A stretch of DNA of 64,000 nt, taken from positions 3,543,522 through 3,607,521 of the forward strand of contig JANPWX010000028.1 of the NCBI GenBank assembly GCA_024734555.1, in the 5' to 3' direction. A program made the translations under genes and the position numbers. The notes beneath the pieces were generated by a model. The model was not told the DNA's origin. It saw only the letters and a list, made by a program, of their open reading frames with translations, and ran no database searches. Positions 40,991 to 64,000 of this stretch are shown here, one piece after another (position 1 is the stretch's first letter; each line of letters opens with the position of its first letter). This DNA comes from Trochalopteron elliotii (lineage: Eukaryota > Chordata > Aves > Passeriformes > Leiothrichidae).

Positions 40991-41505
40991 AAGGAGGAAG
41001 GGATGGAGGGAGAGAGAAGGGGAGAGAGGGAGAAAGGAAGGGAGGGAGGGANNNNNNNNNNNNNNNNNNNNNNNNNNNNNNNNNNNNNNNNNNNNNNNNN
41101 NNNNNNNNNNNNNNNNNNNNNNNNNNNNNNNNNNNNNNNNNNNNNNNNNNNNNNNNNNNNNNNNNNNNNNNNNNNNNNNNNNNNNNNNNNNNNNNNNNNN
41201 NNNNNNNNNNNNNNNNNNNNNNNNNNNNNNNNNNNNNNNNNNNNNNNNNNNNNNNNNNNNNNNNNNNNNNNNNNNNNNNNNNNNNNNNNNNNNNNNNNNN
41301 NNNNNNNNNNNNNNNNNNNNNNNNNNNNNNNNNNNNNNNNNNNNNGGAAGGAAGGAAGGAAGGAAGGAAGGAAGGAAGGAAGGAAGGAAGGAAGGAAGGA
41401 AGGAAGGAAGGAAGGAAGGAAGGAAGGAAGGAAGGAAGGAAGGAAGGAAGGAAGGAAGGAAGGAAGGAAGGAAGGAAGGAAGGAAGGAAGGAAGGAAGGA
41501 AGGAA
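40991..41505 (+). repeat. GGAA/GGGA microsatellite spanning an assembly gap
   Basis: The left flank to 41,051 is degenerate GGGA/GAGA purine sequence. Positions 41,052-41,345 are N (294 bases). From 41,346 to 41,505 the sequence is an essentially perfect GGAA array (about 40 units). It forces long Pro-Ser-Phe-Leu or Lys-Glu-Gly-Arg frames across the gap; these are artefacts. Confidence 0.95.
41052..41345. other. Assembly gap (N run)
   Basis: 294 undetermined bases inside the purine microsatellite. The true length is unknown and is likely repeat that the assembly could not span. Confidence 0.97.
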
Positions 41506-56700: not shown

Positions 56701-58272
56701 GATAGCACAGAAATGAAAGCAGAATGGTGGATTTTTCTAAGGTACAAACTAATGGTGTAAGGAAGTAATGACAGGAAAACAGCTCTCTCAACAGAAATAC
56801 AAGAAATATCAATGACTCAACAGTGCCATTTTCCCACAACAGGAGTTAAGATGGAACTAAAGGATAGCAGGACAAAATCCTCCAGTGTTCTTCAAAGAGA
56901 GAAGTTTGAAAGCGTGAATTTTGCAAGACACAATGTTTCTGAAAGTTAGATGCATCTACAGTGAGCTTCATGTCAGCTCATGTTTGAAATTCTACTACAT
57001 ATCTCTTTCTCATAGGTGAATTCCAAGCTGTCTGAAAACAGATATCAAGGTAATTATATCTATTTTTAACTGCAATGTCATTTACAGTCCTCTTACCAAA
57101 AGCTAAATTTGATGGGAATCTGCTTTGCTCTATGATCAACTGTTATTTCTTCTTGAGATTCTTTGAGACTAACTTTTTAATGTGCAATTATTACACATAT
57201 AAGAAATTTCAATTGCACTTTCAGGTCCACTGCATACACACTCTATTTCAGTCATTGTGTATAGAAACAATCATTTGTAGACAAAACAACCCCACATTAA
57301 AAGGCTTTTACTTGTATAGCATCCTTGAATTGTCTTAGAAAACGTAAATTAGATGAACTTTGAAGTCTCCCTCAATCAAGTTACAAGTTGAAAAAAGAAA
57401 AGAACTAGGAAAAAAAGAATGTATTTTGCTAGTTTTGCTCCAAGTTAATATTTTGGTTTGTTCTTATTTCCTATCCTCCTTTTCACCTTCAAATTCTAAA
57501 TTATTTGTTTGCCTCACCAGAGCCAAATTATTTTGATCCTTTAATTATCTGAATTATTTTTCTATGTTCCTTGTTTCTCTGCCAATCATTAATTCATCTT
57601 GTTGTGAACAGACTGCTAAAAGATTCAGGTTTTGCACAGCATGGCAATGAGGTATAATATGCTTAGCTTTTACATCCAAGAGTTTGAAGACTTCCTGGTT
57701 CATCATATGAGCCAACAAACATGTTTATCTAATGCTTTGCAAAAAGAATAATCTTGCTTTGTCTGTTGTCATTGTTTCCCTTTTGAGTATCACATTCACT
57801 TGAGTGCCACTGTCAAACTGACTTCTGTCAAAGCTAATCCATTCCTCAGTGATAGTATCTTGAAAAGAAACACTGCCTTTCTCTCTCATGGGGATAACAA
57901 TAAACCTAAGAGCTGATCTTCTTAGTGTAAACTGCCAAATCTGAGGAACTGCTCCTCAAACTTGACTAGCTGGGAACACCATATGTTTAAGTCATGTCCT
58001 GGCAGGTCTCTGCAGTTATAAGTAGTTTTCAGCTCTGTACGAGATATTTAACTCTCTCTTCTGCCCCAGTCATGGGTTTGACTTCTTTCCTTATATTGCC
58101 CTTTATCACTATTCTCAGTCTCTCACTGTCTTTTTTTGTTTTGGAAAATTCCCCAGTTTCTGTACTCCTTTCTCAGTGATTCCATTTCAGATATTCCTCC
58201 CTAGTCTCTAAGATCATGAGATGCACTGCCTACAGCAAATGCATGAGCTTTCTCTTCCACATGATTACCCCC
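50724..58272. other. Non-genic host DNA left of the provirus
   Basis: No gene recognised. The longest frame is 122 codons at 52,543-52,911 (plus), with no family motif. A 53,930-54,130 stretch has several TAGGTG/CACCTA-like and CAGGTGC-like words that hint at a very old diverged repeat. A GC-richer patch lies at 54,930-55,230. The host side of the provirus insertion ends at ATTACCCCC just before 58,273. Confidence 0.5.
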
Positions 58273-58323
58273 TGTGATGGTTTGAAAGCAAAACTAGTGA
58301 GAGGCTCCAAGTCAGAAATACAA

Positions 58324-58329
58324 TTTAAT
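58324..58329 (-). promoter_or_regulatory. Possible LTR polyadenylation signal ATTAAA
   Basis: A minus-strand ATTAAA hexamer sits about 50 bp before the LTR 3' end and about 175 bp after the TATA-like box, a plausible R-region position. No canonical AATAAA was seen in the same interval on that strand. Confidence 0.4.
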
Positions 58330-58500
58330 AGGAAAAGAAAAAAAAGAAATAAAATAAATGCAATAATACAAAAAACCCCTGACAGAGTCAGAATACAACC
58401 TGAGCAAGATGATGGAAGCAGCAATCCTGTAGAAAGGTCTGGTAGCTCTGATCCTCTGTAGATCCAGTGGGTAAGGTACCCCGTATTGTCCCAGATCCCA

Positions 58501-58510
58501 GATTATATGC
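58501..58510 (-). promoter_or_regulatory. Possible LTR TATA box
   Basis: Minus-strand GCATATAATC is the only clear TATA-like word in the central LTR. It is placed about 320 bp after the U3 start. Confidence 0.45.
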
Positions 58511-58602
58511 AGGTGAGAATGCTTGGCTCCTCCCCCTGGATGGAGCATCTCACAATGGAATAATGAGTCATACAGGGGGGTCCTTGATGGCCTATTAACG
58601 GG

Positions 58603-58627
58603 AGATAACTCCTGGTGGGAGTTATCT
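58603..58627. repeat. Perfect 10-bp hairpin in U3
   Basis: AGATAACTCC (58,603-58,612), loop TGGTG, GGAGTTATCT (58,618-58,627). The arms are exact complements, so it may be a binding dyad or a structured element in the LTR. Confidence 0.8.
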
Positions 58628-58644
58628 GTAAGTCATCAGCAGGC

Positions 58645-58725
58645 CATTAACAGAAAACACGTTATCAAAAGATCCATTAGCAGAGGACACCTTAACAAAA
58701 GACACCCTAACAGAAAGAGGGAGGG
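58645..58725 (-). repeat. Degenerate short tandem repeats in U3
   Basis: About four imperfect units of roughly 15-20 bp share a TTAACA(A/G)AA(A/G)(A/G)AC-like core on the plus strand. These are TTAACAGAAAAC, TTAGCAGAGGAC, TTAACAAAAGAC and CTAACAGAAAGA. U3 direct repeats of this kind often carry enhancer sites. No specific factor is proposed. Confidence 0.6.
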
Positions 58726-58830
58726 GAGAGCCTGGAAGAATGCTGCTTCAGCAATAGGTTTCCACAGTTCATGAAGATGGTGGTAGAATACTCCGTGCAC
58801 GTTCTACACCACAACCCAGGACATAATCCA

Positions 58831-58839
58831 CCCCTTATT
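58831..58839 (-). other. Polypurine tract
   Basis: Minus-strand AATAAGGGG immediately precedes the 3' LTR TG. This purine run is the plus-strand DNA primer in reverse transcription. It fixes the LTR boundary at 58,830. Confidence 0.85.
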
Positions 58840-58913
58840 CTATCACTATCTACATCATATCTAAATAAATACATTCTTACAGAGATATACATATATACAT
58901 AGAGAATGAAACT

Positions 58914-59825
58914 TCACACACTGTTTTCACTTAAAATTAGGTTTCCCTGTGGCACACAACGGGTTTTCTTATTTTTCTGCATTACTTACCAAGTGTATTC
59001 AGGTCTTTGAGCAAAGACAATCCCACGGGTGGGTTTGCCTTTGTTTGAAGTGGGATTAATTTAAACTGTCTTGCCTAAAATGCCCTTCATGTGTACCACA
59101 GGGACTTTGTCTCTATCTACCGTGTGTAAGGGTTTAGACTGGGCAGGACCAGCTTGATTGATAGACTCTCGGGTGTTGACCATCCAGGTGGCTTTGGCTA
59201 AGTTTATTTCTTAGTTTTTGAAGGTTTCTCTACCAAGTGCCTTCAGGGTAGTTTTTAGTAGTCTATTGCAGCGTTTAACTTTTTTGGCAGCTGGTGCGTG
59301 GTAAGGAATGTGATATATCTATTTAATGCCATGTTCTCTAGCTCAGGTGTTTATAAGGCTGTTTTTGAAATGGGTCTCATTGTCTGACTTAATTCTTTCA
59401 GGGGTGCCGTGTTTTTACAGGACTTGTTTTTCAAGGCCTAAAATGGTGTTCTGGGCAGTGGCATGGGGCACAGGGTATGTTTCTAGCTATCCAGTGGTGG
59501 CTTCTACTATGGTCAGCACGTAGCGCTTTCTTTGGCGGGTTTGGGGAAGGGTGATGTAGTCAATTTGCCAGGCTTTCCTATATCTGTACTTCAGCTATCG
59601 TTTACCATACCACAGAGGCTTTACTTGCTTGGCTTGTTTGATTGCAGCGCAGGTTTCACAGTTGTGGATGACTTGTGAGATGCTGTCTATAGTAAGGTCT
59701 ACTTCTTGGTCACGGGCCCATCGGTATGTTGCATCTCTTCCCTGATGACCAGAGGCATCATGGGCTCAACGAGCTAGAAACAATTCTTTCTTGTGCTGCC
59801 AGTCTAGATCTACTTGTGATATTTT
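58914..59825 (-). pseudogene. pol (IN): ERV integrase (degenerate)
   Basis: Same frame as the rest of pol. The zinc-binding HHCC module is intact: His codons at 59,760-59,762 and 59,745-59,747, and Cys-x2-Cys at 59,658-59,660 and 59,649-59,651. The first catalytic Asp is at 59,559-59,561. The second is at 59,382-59,384, in a Ser-Asp-Asn context. Exactly 35 residues further on, the expected Glu is Lys (AAA at 59,274-59,276), so the D,D-35-E triad is broken. Premature stops: TGA 59,766; TAG 59,595 and 59,487; TAA 59,415; TGA 59,343; TAG 59,319; TAA 59,211, 59,061 and 58,986 (plus-strand low coordinates). The likely genuine end is TGA at 58,914-58,916. No frameshift was seen across about 900 bp. 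Lys is abundant and Gly scarce, consistent with G-to-A change. Confidence 0.9.
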
Positions 59826-60497
59826 CATTTTGGCAGCTTTGTCTACCTGCTTATTGTTGTGATGCTCTTCATTAGCCTGGCTTTTGGGTACGTGTGCATC
59901 TACATGTCGAACTTTTATGGTCAGTTTCTTCACTCGGGCGGCGATGTCTTGCCAAATGTCAGCGGCCCAGATGGGTTTTCTTCTGCGTTGCCAGTTGGCC
60001 TTTTTCTAGCGAGTCAGCCATCTCCACAGAGCATTAGCTACCATTCATGAGTCAGTGTAGAGATAGAGCCTCGGCCACTTCTCTTGTTCAGCAATATCCA
60101 AAGCCAGCTGGACAGCTTTAAGCTCTGCAAGCTGACTCGATCCACTTTGTCCTTCGGTAGCTTGTGCAACTCGTCGTGTGGGGCTTCATACTGCAGCTTT
60201 TTATTTCTGGTTAGTGCCTACAATTTGGCAAGAGCCATCAGTGAAGAGAGCATGTCGTCTTTCAGCCTCTGGTAACTCATTATATGGTGGGGCTTCTTCG
60301 GCACGTGTTACTTGCTTTTTTTCTTCTTCAGACGACAATTTAAAAGTCTCACTTTCTGGCCAGTTTGTTATAACTTCTAGAATCTTAGGGCGATTTGGGT
60401 TTCCAATACGGGCGCGCTGTGTGATGAGGGCAATCCATTTGCTCCATGTGGTGTCAGTGGCGTGATGTGTGGAGGGAACCTTTCTTTTGAACATCTA
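59826..60497 (-). pseudogene. pol (RH): ERV RNase H domain (degenerate)
   Basis: RNase H removes the RNA strand during reverse transcription. The Phe-Thr-Asp-Gly-Ser motif places the first catalytic Asp at 60,237-60,239. The Glu of a Gln-Leu-Ala-Glu-Leu-Lys-Ala block is at 60,123-60,125, and the Asp of Tyr-Thr-Asp-Ser is at 60,051-60,053. A late His/Asn-rich block with a Val-Asp-Lys-Ala-Ala end lies near 59,840-59,880. Premature stops: TAG 60,495; TAA 60,201; TGA 60,186 and 60,045; TAG 60,006. The frame is otherwise continuous with RT and integrase. The assignment is firm from motif order, and the copy cannot make a full-length product. Confidence 0.9.
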
Positions 60498-61751
60498 CCC
60501 CAGCACTGGTAGTCGAGGTGCTAAAAGCAGTTGTGTTTCAGTGCCAATCACTTCTGAGGCTGCTTGAACTCTTTCGTAGGCGGCCAAGATCTCTTTCTCT
60601 GTGGGAGTGTAGTTGGCTTCGGAGCCTCTGTAACTTTGGCTCCAGAATTCTAATGGTTGGCTTCGAGTCTCCCCAGGCGCCTTCTGCCAGAGGCTCCAGG
60701 ACAGTCCATGGCTCCCGGCTGCAGAGTAGAGCACATTTTTCACGTCTGGTCTTGTCTTGACTGGGCTAAGGGCTACTGCATGAGCAATCTCATGCTTGAT
60801 CTGAACAAAGGCTTGTTGCTGTTCAGGGCCCCAGTGGAAATCATTCTTCTTGCGGGTAACCAGGTAGAGAGGGCTTACGATCTGGCTATACTCAGGGATG
60901 TGCATTCTCCAAAAGCTTATGGCACTTAGGAAAGCTTGCGTTTCCTTTTTGTTAGTAGGTGGAGACATGGCAGTGATTTTGTTGATGATCTTTGTGGGAA
61001 TTTGGCGACGTTTATCTTGCCACTTCACTCCCAGGAACTGGATTTCTTGAGCCGGTTTCTTAACTTTACTTTGTTTAATGGCAAAGCTAGCTTTTAGCAG
61101 AATTTGGATAATTTTCTTTCTTTTCTCGAAGACTTTTTTTGGGGTGTTCTCCCATACGATGATATCATCGATGTACTGCAGATGTTCTGGAGCCTCACCC
61201 TTCTCCAGTGCAGCCTGGATCAGTCCATGGCAGATGGTGGGGCTGTGTTTCTACTCCTGGGGCAATCGGTTTCAGGTGTACTGCACGCCCCTCCAGGTGA
61301 AAGCAAACTGGGGTCTGCACTCTGCTGCCAGAGGAATGGAGAAGAAGGCATTGGCAATATCAATGGTTGCATACCACTTTGTTGCTTTGGACTTCAGCTC
61401 GTACTGAAGCTCTAACATGTCTGGCACTGCAGCGCTCAGTGGTGGCGTGACTTTATTCAGACCACGGTAATCTACTGTCAGTCTTTATTCTCTACTGGAC
61501 TTACGCACAGGCCATATAGGGCTGTTGAAAGGTGAATGAGCTTTAGTGACTACTTCTTGGCTCTCTAGTTTACGGATTATTTCATGTATGGGAATCACAG
61601 AGTCTCTGTCAGTGCGGTATTGCCGACGGTGTACTGTTGCTGTGGCAATTGGTACCTGTTGTTCTTTGACTCTCAGCAGTCCTACAGCAGAGGGGTTATC
61701 TGAGAGACCAGGCAAAGTATTCAACTGTCTGATGTTTTTTTTCTCCACTGC
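60498..61751 (-). pseudogene. pol (RT): ERV reverse transcriptase (degenerate)
   Basis: RT copies the viral RNA into DNA. The N-terminal part has an Ile-Pro-Ile-His-Glu...Ser-Pro-Phe-Asn-Ser-Pro-Ile-Trp-Pro-Val block typical of retroviral RTs (within 61,485-61,748). Palm motif A (Ile-Asp-Ile-Ala-Asn-Ala-Phe-Phe) has its catalytic Asp at 61,359-61,361. The catalytic Tyr-Ile-Asp-Asp box is intact at 61,164-61,175. Downstream is the thumb/connection region, open from 61,028 to 60,498. Its Phe-Leu-Ser-Ala-Ile-Ser stretch has Ser (AGT 60,924; AGC 60,915) where retroviral RTs usually have a conserved Gly at the first site. Premature stops: TAA 61,485; TGA 61,272; TAG 61,251. No frameshift seen. Confidence 0.92.
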
Positions 61752-62108
61752 AGCTATCCCGAAAGCCCAACGATATCTTTTTGGGTCTTTGAAATATTCA
61801 TTCTTGAGATAGTTTATGCTGAGGATACATGGGGCCTCTGGGCCAGTTGCGATGGGGTGTTTTTGCTACTCATTCCTCGTTAAACTTACTTCAGCCTCTA
61901 ATATAGTCAGTATTTGGGACTCTCTTGTCACCCCAGAGATAGAAATGGCTTCTCTTCTTACATAACTTGATGGCATCATGGTACATTGGGCCCCAGTGTC
62001 AACCAACGCCGTATATTTTTGTGGGTCAGATGTGCTAGGCCATCGGATCCACACAGTCCAGTAGATCTGGTTGTCTCTTTCTTTTACCTGGTCAGAGGCA
62101 GGGCTCCC
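61752..62108 (-). pseudogene. pro: ERV aspartic protease (degenerate)
   Basis: The retropepsin active-site motif Asp-Thr-Gly-Ala lies at 61,989-62,000, preceded by Tyr-Thr-Ala-Leu-Val as in retroviral proteases, which cleave the Gag-Pol precursor. It is in the same frame as both gag and RT. The upstream boundary is the TAG at 62,109-62,111. A premature TAG lies at 61,866-61,868, just after the protease core. Beyond that stop the frame continues into a linker and then RT. No frameshift seen. Confidence 0.88.
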
Positions 62109-63244
62109 CTATTCCTGATCATGGCATACATTGTTCTTTCTCTGTAAATATGTTTCTGAGGTCCCTTCAAGAGGATCAGTCATATCATCATTCCTGTACC
62201 GTGTGGGGTTTTGTGCACGAGAAACCGGAGCGACATTGATTCTAGATGGGCTTCTTGTGGTAGATGTTTTTCGTTTTAGCTCACGTACCCGGGCTGCTAA
62301 GGAGGAGGTGGGTTTTCCATCCCACTTCTTCATGTTTTCTCTATGCTCTCGAAGGAAAGACCAGAGGTTACCTCGTGGTGTGTATCTTCTCTCCCTGGCT
62401 GGGGAGCGCCTGCTCCTAATGGCAGAGACTTTCGTTGGCTCTGGTGAGATGTGGTAAATTTTTTCCTTAAGTTCTTTTTTCAGTTTCTGATGGTCTTCTG
62501 CAATTAACTTCTGGACTTGCTCAGCTAGTCCTGTTTCCACAGACGAGACACGGGTACGAATTGGTGCAGTGACAGTGTTTTCGTAAATTCTTAGTTTATT
62601 TGTCAGGACACCCACCTTGTCCTCACCTTCTCTTCATTGCAGTGTTGCCAGGTAACGTGAGTACATCTCTGGTCCAAGCCGTGCAAATCTCAACCACATC
62701 CGTGATGTGCAATGGACGTTATCTGGGCTTTTAGGAAATTTCTTGTCTTCTGAAAAAATGATTTCCAGCACGGCCAATTCCCTCAGGCATCGGATACTTT
62801 GTTCTATTGTGCTCCATTTTCTTTGGTGTACTTGGAGGTCTTTTTTATAAAGGTATCTGTCTTTCACACTTGTTAGCAGTCGCTGCTAGAGACTGAGAGG
62901 TTCTTGGGTTTTTTCAATTCCCTGGTCAATGACCACATTCTGGGACAGCGATCTCAGTTGTCTGGCCTCAATTCTATCTAGAATGGTGTCATTGGCTGCA
63001 GCGTCCCAGATGCGGAGCAGCCAGGTCAGGATGGACTCGTTGGTCTGGCGGGTGAATTCTCTTCGCAGGTCACGCAGCTCACCCAGAGATAGAGAGCGGG
63101 TGATGATCTCTGTCTCCGTCTCTTCTACTGGGTGCGAAGGTCCTGCTGCATCCTCGTCAGTCACTGTGCGGACTGATTTGCTTTTTACTTTCTTCTTCTG
63201 AGTGGTGGCAACTGCTACTGGTTTAGGCTGTTCCAGTTCAGTGA

Positions 63245-63480
63245 CGGTTTGTGTGGAGATGGTGACAGCACCTTTGGTTCTTTTCTCTTCTGTGACAGAC
63301 TGCATAGATGGGGACACCGTTGCCTCACTTTTGGCTTCTTTTCTTTTTGTGATGGTTTGTGTAGATGTGGACACTGTTGTCTCACTTTTGGCTTTTTTTT
63401 CTTTTTGTGATGGTCTGTGTAGATGTGGACACTGTTGCCTTGCTTTTCATTTCTTCTACCTCTTCCTTAAGATGCTGTAT
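63245..63480 (-). repeat. 57-bp coding tandem repeat in gag
   Basis: The plus-strand word AGATG(T/G)GGACAC(T/C)GTTG recurs at 63,421, 63,363 and 63,306, spaced 58 and 57 bp. A shorter, diverged unit begins near 63,257. The unit encodes 19 residues (a Ser-Thr-Ser-Thr-Gln-Thr core followed by a Lys/Arg/Glu-rich linker). The 58-bp spacing marks the copy with one extra base. Confidence 0.85.
63393..63400 (-). other. Frameshift site: T8 homopolymer in gag repeat
   Basis: The repeat copy here has T8 between two C residues, where the sister copy at 63,336-63,342 has the 7-base TTCTTTT. The extra base shifts the minus-strand frame and separates the N-terminal hydrophobic part from the rest of gag. 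Confidence 0.8.
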
Positions 63481-63965
63481 CACACTATGTAGTGTTTTGA
63501 TTCTGAGCATTGTGTGTGCTGTGCAGAGGAGACTGAGCAGGACTAACAATAACCCCATGCTGTCTTTGGCATCCAGAGGGTACTCAATATTTATAAAAAC
63601 TGCTGTGTCATGCCTGAAAAGCTTGAAAAAATCATTCTTTACCCCTCCCCACAGGGGCTGGGTGAGATTATTGAGGCCCTGGATGTAGCATCTTGGACCA
63701 GAACAGGAGTACAAAGCTGGGTATATGTTCTGAATGATGTTCATTGCCTTGGAGTTTATCAAGCAATGGGCATAATAGACCAATAAAGCAATTTTAGTAC
63801 CATACCCTGGTCTATGCAGGAGCATTAAGACCGGCAGATAGTGCCCCAGGTGCGGAAAAATATAGAGAGATAGGTACAAGACACATGTGAGCATGCTGAG
63901 CATCATGGCAAACAGGTGCCTGCCTCAATATGAAATTGTAATTCTGACTTTTTTCAGTGCCTCTT

Positions 63966-63983
63966 GCCCCACGTTGGGCGCCA
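63966..63983 (-). promoter_or_regulatory. Retroviral primer-binding site, tRNA-Lys1,2 type
   Basis: Minus-strand TGGCGCCCAACGTGGGGC is an 18-base match to the tRNA-Lys1,2 3' end complement known from spumaviruses, Mason-Pfizer-type viruses and visna virus. It starts 4 bases (TATT) after the end of the 5' LTR, which marks the start of minus-strand DNA synthesis. Confidence 0.92.
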
Positions 63984-63987
63984 AATA

Positions 63988-64000
63988 TGTGATGGTTTGA
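63988..64000 (-). repeat. Inner end of the 5' LTR (13 bases, truncated by window)
   Basis: TGTGATGGTTTGA on the plus strand equals the first 13 bases of the 3' LTR at 58,273. The remaining roughly 545 bases should lie just beyond the window. Confidence 0.9.

What the first reader, a model, noticed from the sequence alone, without database searches (positions are those of the whole stretch)
58914..62108. Provirus pol shows a G-to-A hypermutation signature (18 stops, no frameshift)
Seen: across about 3.2 kb, protease, RT, RNase H and integrase stay in one minus-strand frame with no frameshift, yet there are 18 premature stops. By plus-strand low coordinate they are 61866, 61485, 61272, 61251, 60495, 60201, 60186, 60045, 60006, 59766, 59595, 59487, 59415, 59343, 59319, 59211, 59061 and 58986 (7 TAG, 5 TGA, 6 TAA). 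Each is one or two G-to-A steps from TGG. Gly codons are few (about 16 in the last 430 codons by eye, only one GGG) while Lys AAA is abundant. Known: cytidine deaminases edit minus-strand cDNA and turn TGG into stops. CpG decay cannot do that at TGG. Inference: the copy was edited at insertion and dead on arrival. Birds lack APOBEC3, so AID or APOBEC1-like enzymes would be the candidates.
Basis: partly seen in the sequence, partly recalled or inferred. Interest (0 to 1): 0.82.

Follow-up and report, generated by a model that had tools for sequence, protein, structure and literature searches.

The report
Deaminase-scarred bird retroelement copy
This genome carries a young retrovirus-like element riddled with one kind of mutation, G to A, in a pattern left by an antiviral DNA-editing enzyme that struck while the element was being copied; such editing is already known in songbirds, but the scar shape, the nearby candidate enzymes and an unscarred second element family make the open question of which enzyme does it testable.

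Summary
The finding holds. All 18 stops are at the stated places, and the finding's refutation test fails. Against the nearest same-genome copy, 187 of 190 differences over 3,195 nt are G-to-A and 1 is C-to-T. All 18 stops lie where relatives read tryptophan. Context is GG 0.42, GA 0.25, GC 0.02, GT 0.04. On the minus strand TCC is the hottest motif; AID hotspots WRC are nearly untouched (7 of 171), AID coldspots are edited (66 of 265). Editing climbs from gag to the 3' end of pol and drops in the 3' LTR, as expected if single-stranded minus cDNA was deaminated during reverse transcription. Sixteen of 38 other copies pass the same test. A second, betaretrovirus-like family shows no such signal in 29 copies. 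Three family searches find AID, two APOBEC1-like exons beside it, and APOBEC2. So an APOBEC1-like enzyme is the likeliest editor and AID is disfavoured; neither was assayed. Editing of songbird LTR elements is in print (Knisbacher and Levanon 2016; seen only through citing passages). This is a new, very clear member of a known kind; the family contrast is the least expected part.

The parts
58914..62108 (-). pol frame (protease, RT, RNase H, integrase) with 18 internal stops and 187 G>A changes against the yardstick copy
   Evidence: Of 9 pieces between stops sent to Pfam, 2 pass a curated cut-off (RVT_1; RT_RNaseH_2 and RT_RNaseH), 4 have only weaker matches (protease, RNase H, integrase zinc domain, integrase core), 3 have none
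62109..63965 (-). gag and leader region of the same copy; lighter G>A editing (58 of 455 G sites over 62109-63988 against one other copy)
63966..63983 (-). primer binding site, 18 nt; reads as the complement of the 3' end of tRNA-Lys (CTT) by recall, not tested
58273..58918 (-). 3' LTR, 646 bp, TGTG...CACA ends; few G>A (6 of 135 G sites against one other copy)
   Evidence: the 3' flank 57900-58272 has no match at E 1e-20 in the pieces of 20 other copies
63988..64000 (-). last 13 nt of the 5' LTR; the rest lies beyond the window and reads N in the assembly

Best explanation
An env-less endogenous retrovirus copy whose single-stranded minus-strand cDNA was hit by an AID/APOBEC-family cytosine deaminase during one round of reverse transcription, and which then integrated. 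C-to-U on the minus strand became G-to-A on the element strand and turned 18 tryptophan codons into stops, so the copy was dead on arrival. Shown: direction, strand bias, context, gradient, and many sister copies with largely their own edits. Inferred: that it happened in one round, and the enzyme. I commit to an APOBEC1-like protein encoded near AID in this genome (about 0.7 on its own).
For: 187 of 190 differences from the yardstick copy are G>A, 1 is C>T. All 18 stops sit at tryptophan codons of that copy. Edited share by next base: GG 110/264, GA 68/274, GC 4/198, GT 5/141; minus-strand TCC 59/98, ACC 17/39, TTC 22/80, CCC 18/65. AID hotspot WRC 7/171 against coldspot SYC 66/265 (motifs as tabulated in PMC5391955, passages). 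Gradient at G followed by A or G: leader and gag 50/274, last quarter of pol 66/136, 3' LTR 4/77 (pol end against LTR p 4.7e-12); PMC12548423 (passages) says HIV-1 editing peaks 5' of its polypurine tracts. 16 of 38 other copies pass the GR-against-GY test at p under 0.05/39; the GG:GA mix is uniform over 17 edited copies (p 0.71). Searches with PF18778, PF08210 and PF18769 find catalytic exons of AID, two APOBEC1-like genes and APOBEC2, and no further one (identities).
Against: The enzyme is not shown: no expression, no activity, and only catalytic exons of the APOBEC1-like genes were read. In PMC3880073 (passages) new LINE copies made in cells with lizard APOBEC1 were not hypermutated, and genomic editing in anole was seen in L1 but not in LTR elements. 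That paper also reports DNA mutator activity for a zebrafish APOBEC2, so APOBEC2 is not excluded. In the 8 other edited copies examined the second half of the 3' LTR is not low (47/274 against 16/292 in the first half), so the LTR drop is only partial there. Shared edits run slightly above expectation overall (463 seen, 412.6 expected over 16 copies). The 5' LTR and target-site duplication could not be read. APOBEC4 was not searched by its own family model.
Confidence: 0.9

Rival explanations
1. AID, the antibody deaminase, edited the cDNA.
Against: AID hotspots are nearly untouched (WRC 7/171) and AID coldspots are edited (SYC 66/265); AGC, a canonical AID hotspot in PMC5391955, is 0/53.
Confidence: 0.07
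2. Reverse-transcriptase error under unbalanced nucleotide pools (too little dCTP) made the G-to-A changes, without a deaminase.
For: It also gives G-to-A on the element strand (recalled, no call).
Against: It does not predict a drop in the LTR right after the hottest part of pol (66/136 to 4/77), nor the lack of signal in a second young ERV family (0 of 29), nor a TCC-type motif. These are arguments, not a direct test.
Confidence: 0.03
3. Ordinary decay after insertion: CpG loss and drift.
For: Old ERVs do gain stops (recalled); one old copy here has balanced changes (L048: G>A 38, C>T 42).
Against: C>T 1 of 795 against G>A 187 of 877; 3 other changes in 3,195 nt means a young copy; a second family in this genome shows G>A 170 and C>T 194 summed over its copies.
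Confidence: 0.01
4. The stops are inherited: an edited parent copy was mobilised by intact copies and spread.
For: Two copies 5.4 kb apart on contig C676 share 96 of 96 edits, so edited copies can be duplicated. Shared edits exceed the context-and-position expectation in 14 of 16 copies, by 463 to 412.6 in all.
Against: The excess is small (largest: 50 seen, 40.2 expected; others such as 36 against 35.3), and finer hotspots would explain it. Each stop of the window copy is found in only 0 to 10 of 39 relatives.
Confidence: 0.03

Closest known systems
APOBEC editing of songbird LTR retrotransposons (Knisbacher and Levanon 2016, not held; seen only through citing passages in PMC6523648 and PMC6497032)
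   Same: G-to-A editing of LTR elements; PMC6497032 says birds, oscine passerines above all, gave the strongest signals, and PMC6523648 says zebra finch was strong and medium ground finch much weaker
   Different: Here one copy is followed with its motif, its gradient along the element, the host's deaminase exons and an unedited second family. Whether that paper already gives motifs or family contrasts I could not read.
APOBEC3 hypermutation of HIV-1 and mouse retroviruses (PMC5391955 Table 1; PMC12548423; passages)
   Same: Minus-strand deamination, GG and GA context, rise toward the 3' polypurine tract; the nearest tabulated motif is mouse APOBEC3 (TYC)
   Different: No further catalytic exon of APOBEC3 type was found in this genome; TCC is hotter than CCC, unlike human APOBEC3G.
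Green anole APOBEC1 (PMC3880073, passages)
   Same: A non-mammalian APOBEC1 that is a DNA mutator; zebra finch APOBEC1 is named there as the other non-mammalian homologue known at the time
   Different: There editing was seen in L1 and not in LTR elements, and new LINE copies in cell assays were not hypermutated; here an LTR element is edited.
TguERVL2 family of estrildid finches (PMC6523648, passages)
   Same: About 6.4 kb, gag and pol without an intact env, recently active; this copy would be about 6.36 kb if the 5' LTR equals the 3' LTR
   Different: No sequence comparison was possible; the name is a lead only.

Membership tests
AID/APOBEC-type hypermutation of a reverse-transcribed element | large G>A excess over C>T on the element strand | tested here: met
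   187/877 against 1/795
AID/APOBEC-type hypermutation of a reverse-transcribed element | dinucleotide context preference | tested here: met
   GR 178/538 against GY 9/339, p 2.5e-32
AID/APOBEC-type hypermutation of a reverse-transcribed element | gradient set by single-strand exposure: low near PBS, high before the 3' PPT, low in LTR | tested here: met
   Met in the window copy. In 8 other edited copies (of 16 that pass): gag to pol rise met (Spearman 0.90), LTR low only in its first half
AID as the editor | WRC hot, SYC cold | tested here: not met
   WRC 7/171, SYC 66/265
APOBEC3G as the editor | CCC as the hotspot | tested here: not met
   CCC 18/65 against TCC 59/98
APOBEC1-like as the editor | catalytic exon present with H-x-E and P-C-x(2,4)-C motif | tested here: met
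   two open exons on C439, human APOBEC1 the best solved relative of each; motif read by eye; the other exons were not read
APOBEC1-like as the editor | DNA mutator activity with YC (TCC) preference | not testable with these tools
   needs an assay
TguERVL2 (ERVL) family | sequence match to the family's pol | not tested
   sequence not held; the RT piece's best solved relatives are gammaretroviral and foamy-virus enzymes (virus names partly by recall)

The most novel reading that the evidence does not exclude
In this bird two diverged APOBEC1-like enzymes near AID do the job that APOBEC3 does in mammals, and they do it selectively: they hit about 4 in 10 of the sampled copies of an env-less ERVL-like family and leave a young betaretrovirus-like family untouched, because that family excludes or blocks the enzyme.
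Probability: 0.3. Interest if true: 0.75.

Novelty: new member of a known kind. Interest (0 to 1): 0.5.

Why it matters
This genome gives a clean motif (YC, TCC on top), a profile along the element that ties the editing to reverse transcription, four catalytic exons to choose from, and two young ERV families of which one is scarred and one is not. Together these make two questions directly testable: which avian deaminase edits retroelements, and how one family avoids it.

Tried and rejected
Rejected: CpG decay (strand asymmetry), AID as editor (context), inherited stops as the main cause (sharing near hotspot level), two editors with different mixes (GG:GA uniform, p 0.71).

Led nowhere: dating by LTR pair (5' LTR reads N). 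A count of the window's family that is blind to editing, by a degenerate pattern or an edit-insensitive 80-nt query, never got an answer, so the edited share (16 of 38) is from the 40 best-scored of 610 candidates and is not a genome-wide rate. Rows dropped: from 23 copies with at least 12 G>A (window included), six were left out of the pooled motif: L042 (duplicate of L041), and L034, L046, L010, L024, L048 (few edits or an old copy). Of 32 other-ERV pieces, L105 and L107 did not align to the second family and fell out. The first 12 of these pieces came from an integrase-profile ranking that favours open frames; the next 20 from a DNA ranking (40 scored of 168). An edit-insensitive 80-nt query for the second family (40 scored of 104) brought up 36 places already and 4 not in it; all 17 perfect matches are at 95% or more over 682 nt, and letters were held for 12 of those 17. 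Against the idea that betaretroviruses escape as a rule: PMC12548423 (passages) describes very heavily edited endogenous MMTV copies in mice.

Full report
What is there. The window lies in a 1.04 Gb assembly of 2,215 contigs. At its right end, on the minus strand, is an env-less endogenous retrovirus copy. Its 3' LTR is 58273-58918 (646 bp, TGTG...CACA). The pol frame 58914-62108 ends inside the first bases of that LTR, gag and leader lie at 62109-63965, and an 18-nt primer site lies at 63966-63983 (it matches tRNA-Lys CTT by recall). The 5' LTR begins at 63988 and continues into a stretch of 3,879 N. Of 9 pieces of pol between stops, 2 pass a Pfam cut-off (reverse transcriptase; RNase H-like domain of RT), 4 have weaker matches to protease, RNase H, integrase zinc domain and integrase core, and 3 have none. 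The RT piece is closest to gammaretroviral and foamy-virus enzymes among solved structures (virus names partly by recall).

The observation. The glycine count is also exact.

I took the 39 best same-genome copies (40 places scored of 610 candidates, one of them the window itself) and compared copy against copy, without a consensus. Against the least different copy, used as yardstick, the window differs at 190 of 3,195 sites: 187 G>A, 0 A>G, 1 C>T, 0 T>C, 2 transversions. Against all 39, G>A ranges from 109 to 194 and C>T from 0 to 24; A>G runs up to 64 where the other copy is itself edited. At the 18 stop sites the 39 relatives read TGG 594 times, a stop 79 times, another codon once, CAA/CAG/CGA never, with 28 cells without data. 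Of 47 in-frame TGG codons in the yardstick, 18 became stops. Glycine is 38 against 88. Of the 40 copies, 31 are complete over at least 1,060 codons and 11 of those have no premature stop, so intact pol frames exist in the family.

Context. By the next base, the edited share of G is GG 110/264, GA 68/274, GC 4/198, GT 5/141; two other copies as reference give nearly the same shares. Read on the minus strand, TCC is 59/98, ACC 17/39, TTC 22/80, CCC 18/65, GCC 16/62; every NRC context is at or below 0.12. AID would prefer WRC and avoid SYC (PMC5391955, passages). Here WRC is 7/171 and SYC 66/265. Human APOBEC3G would prefer CCC. The nearest tabulated motif is mouse APOBEC3, TYC. Sixteen other edited copies pooled also have GGA on top (GGA 349/1545, GGT 87/599, GGG 104/1021), and the GG:GA mix does not differ among the 17 edited copies (p 0.71), so one enzyme type suffices.

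Gradient. At G followed by A or G, the window copy is edited at 0.10, 0.25, 0.20, 0.16 in quarters of leader and gag, at 0.25, 0.31, 0.37, 0.22, 0.32, 0.23, 0.50, 0.47 in eighths of pol, and at 0.08 and 0.03 in halves of the 3' LTR. Last quarter of pol against LTR: 66/136 against 4/77, p 4.7e-12; against leader and gag 50/274, p 3.6e-10. The climb is uneven (Spearman 0.70 over 12 bins) but has the shape expected if the minus strand is exposed longest just 5' of the polypurine tract and the LTR is covered early by plus-strand DNA. Eight other edited copies pooled (of the 16 that pass; those whose gag and LTR pieces were fetched) show a smoother climb (Spearman 0.90) and a low first half of the LTR (16/292), but the second half is not low (47/274). 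I have no good reason for that; editing of minus strong-stop DNA before strand transfer is one guess.

Independence and age. Over 16 other edited copies, edits shared with the window number 463 against 412.6 expected from context and quarter of pol; 14 of 16 copies are above expectation, the largest 50 against 40.2 (sums over the pairs printed). That small excess fits finer hotspots; it does not fit a common edited parent. One pair of copies on contig C676, 5.4 kb apart, shares all 96 edits, which is duplication. Sixteen of 38 other copies pass the test at p under 0.05/39 (15 if the duplicate is counted once). Among the 39 rows there is no C>T burst: the highest C>T count is 42, in one old copy with G>A 38. 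The window copy differs from three near copies by only 3 to 6 changes other than G>A in 3,195 nt. At recalled bird rates that is some 0.1 to 0.5 million years, a rough figure.

The second family. An integrase-profile search scored 150 places of 1,808 candidates. One young family among them has a betaretrovirus-like integrase (best solved relatives 5cz1, 5cz2 and 3jca, MMTV by recall). Over 682 nt, 29 copies against one reference give G>A 170, C>T 194, A>G 99, T>C 94 summed, and none shows a GR excess (smallest p 0.12). The same length on the integrase side of the window's family shows a strong G>A excess in 17 of 39 copies, window included; 17/39 against 0/29 is p 1.2e-5. An edit-insensitive 80-nt query for the second family (40 scored of 104 candidates) returned 17 perfect matches, all of them copies listed at 95% identity or more over 682 nt, so heavily edited members are not hiding among those. 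This is two families in one genome, the samples were drawn differently, and 64 of 104 candidates were not scored. Selectivity is a strong lead and not a law. PMC12548423 (passages) also shows that endogenous MMTV can be heavily edited in mice, so escape is not a rule for betaretroviruses.

The enzymes. Three family searches of the genome (PF18778, PF08210, PF18769; 11, 12 and 31 candidates, all scored) find four catalytic exons. One is AID on contig C439 (best solved relative AID, 1.3e-53). Two are APOBEC1-like exons on the same contig, about 10 and 26 kb from it (best solved relative human APOBEC1, 1.8e-30 and 3.2e-25). The last is APOBEC2 on C1672 (7.6e-91). The two APOBEC1-like exons are 38% identical to each other. 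The first scores best with an APOBEC4-like model and APOBEC1 next; the second scores best with a secreted-deaminase model (SNAD4), APOBEC1 lower. Both keep the catalytic motif by eye. AID is disfavoured by context; APOBEC2 is usually held to lack DNA mutator activity in amniotes (recalled), although PMC3880073 reports such activity for a zebrafish APOBEC2. An APOBEC1-like protein is therefore the candidate, by elimination and not by assay.

Known or new. PMC6523648 and PMC6497032 (passages) state that Knisbacher and Levanon 2016 found strong LTR editing in birds, above all in oscine passerines and zebra finch, and weaker in medium ground finch; that paper is not held. PMC3880073 (passages) reports mutator activity of anole APOBEC1, but no hypermutation of new LINE copies in cells. 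So the phenomenon is known and this copy is a clear member. I found no paper on family-selective editing in birds or on two APOBEC1-like genes in a songbird, but only in the listings of ten searches of an open-access library, which is weak ground for a claim of absence. The element resembles TguERVL2 of estrildid finches in size, layout and youth (PMC6523648, passages); no sequence test was possible.

Noticed in passing
41346-41505: A perfect (GGAA)40 microsatellite, 160 bp at 100% match.
   Followed up: no
63269-63447: Three tandem copies of a 57-58 nt unit inside the gag region; 58 is not a multiple of three.
   Followed up: no
62109-63988: Outside G>A, leader and gag differ from the four copies nearest in pol by 13 to 30 changes over 1.35 to 1.88 kb, against 3 to 8 in 3.2 kb of pol, which suggests a recombinant between subfamilies.
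   Followed up: partly
L041, L042 (contig C676) and L019, L033 (contig C1019): Two copies of the element 5.4 and 5.8 kb apart on one contig, as in tandem copies sharing an LTR. The C676 pair has identical edits; the C1019 pair does not (G>A 2 and 45 against the yardstick).
   Followed up: no
L091 (G000:C439:49478-49855): A second, diverged APOBEC1-like catalytic exon near AID whose best Pfam model is SNAD4 and not APOBEC1.
   Followed up: partly
G000:C439:22413-22583 (L094): The AID exon 2 match is reported with one TGA inside the matched stretch; whether that is an exon edge or a real stop was not checked.
   Followed up: no
L081-L088 (3' LTRs of other edited copies): The second half of the 3' LTR is edited about three times as often as the first half in 8 edited copies pooled (47/274 against 16/292), unlike the window copy.
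   Followed up: no
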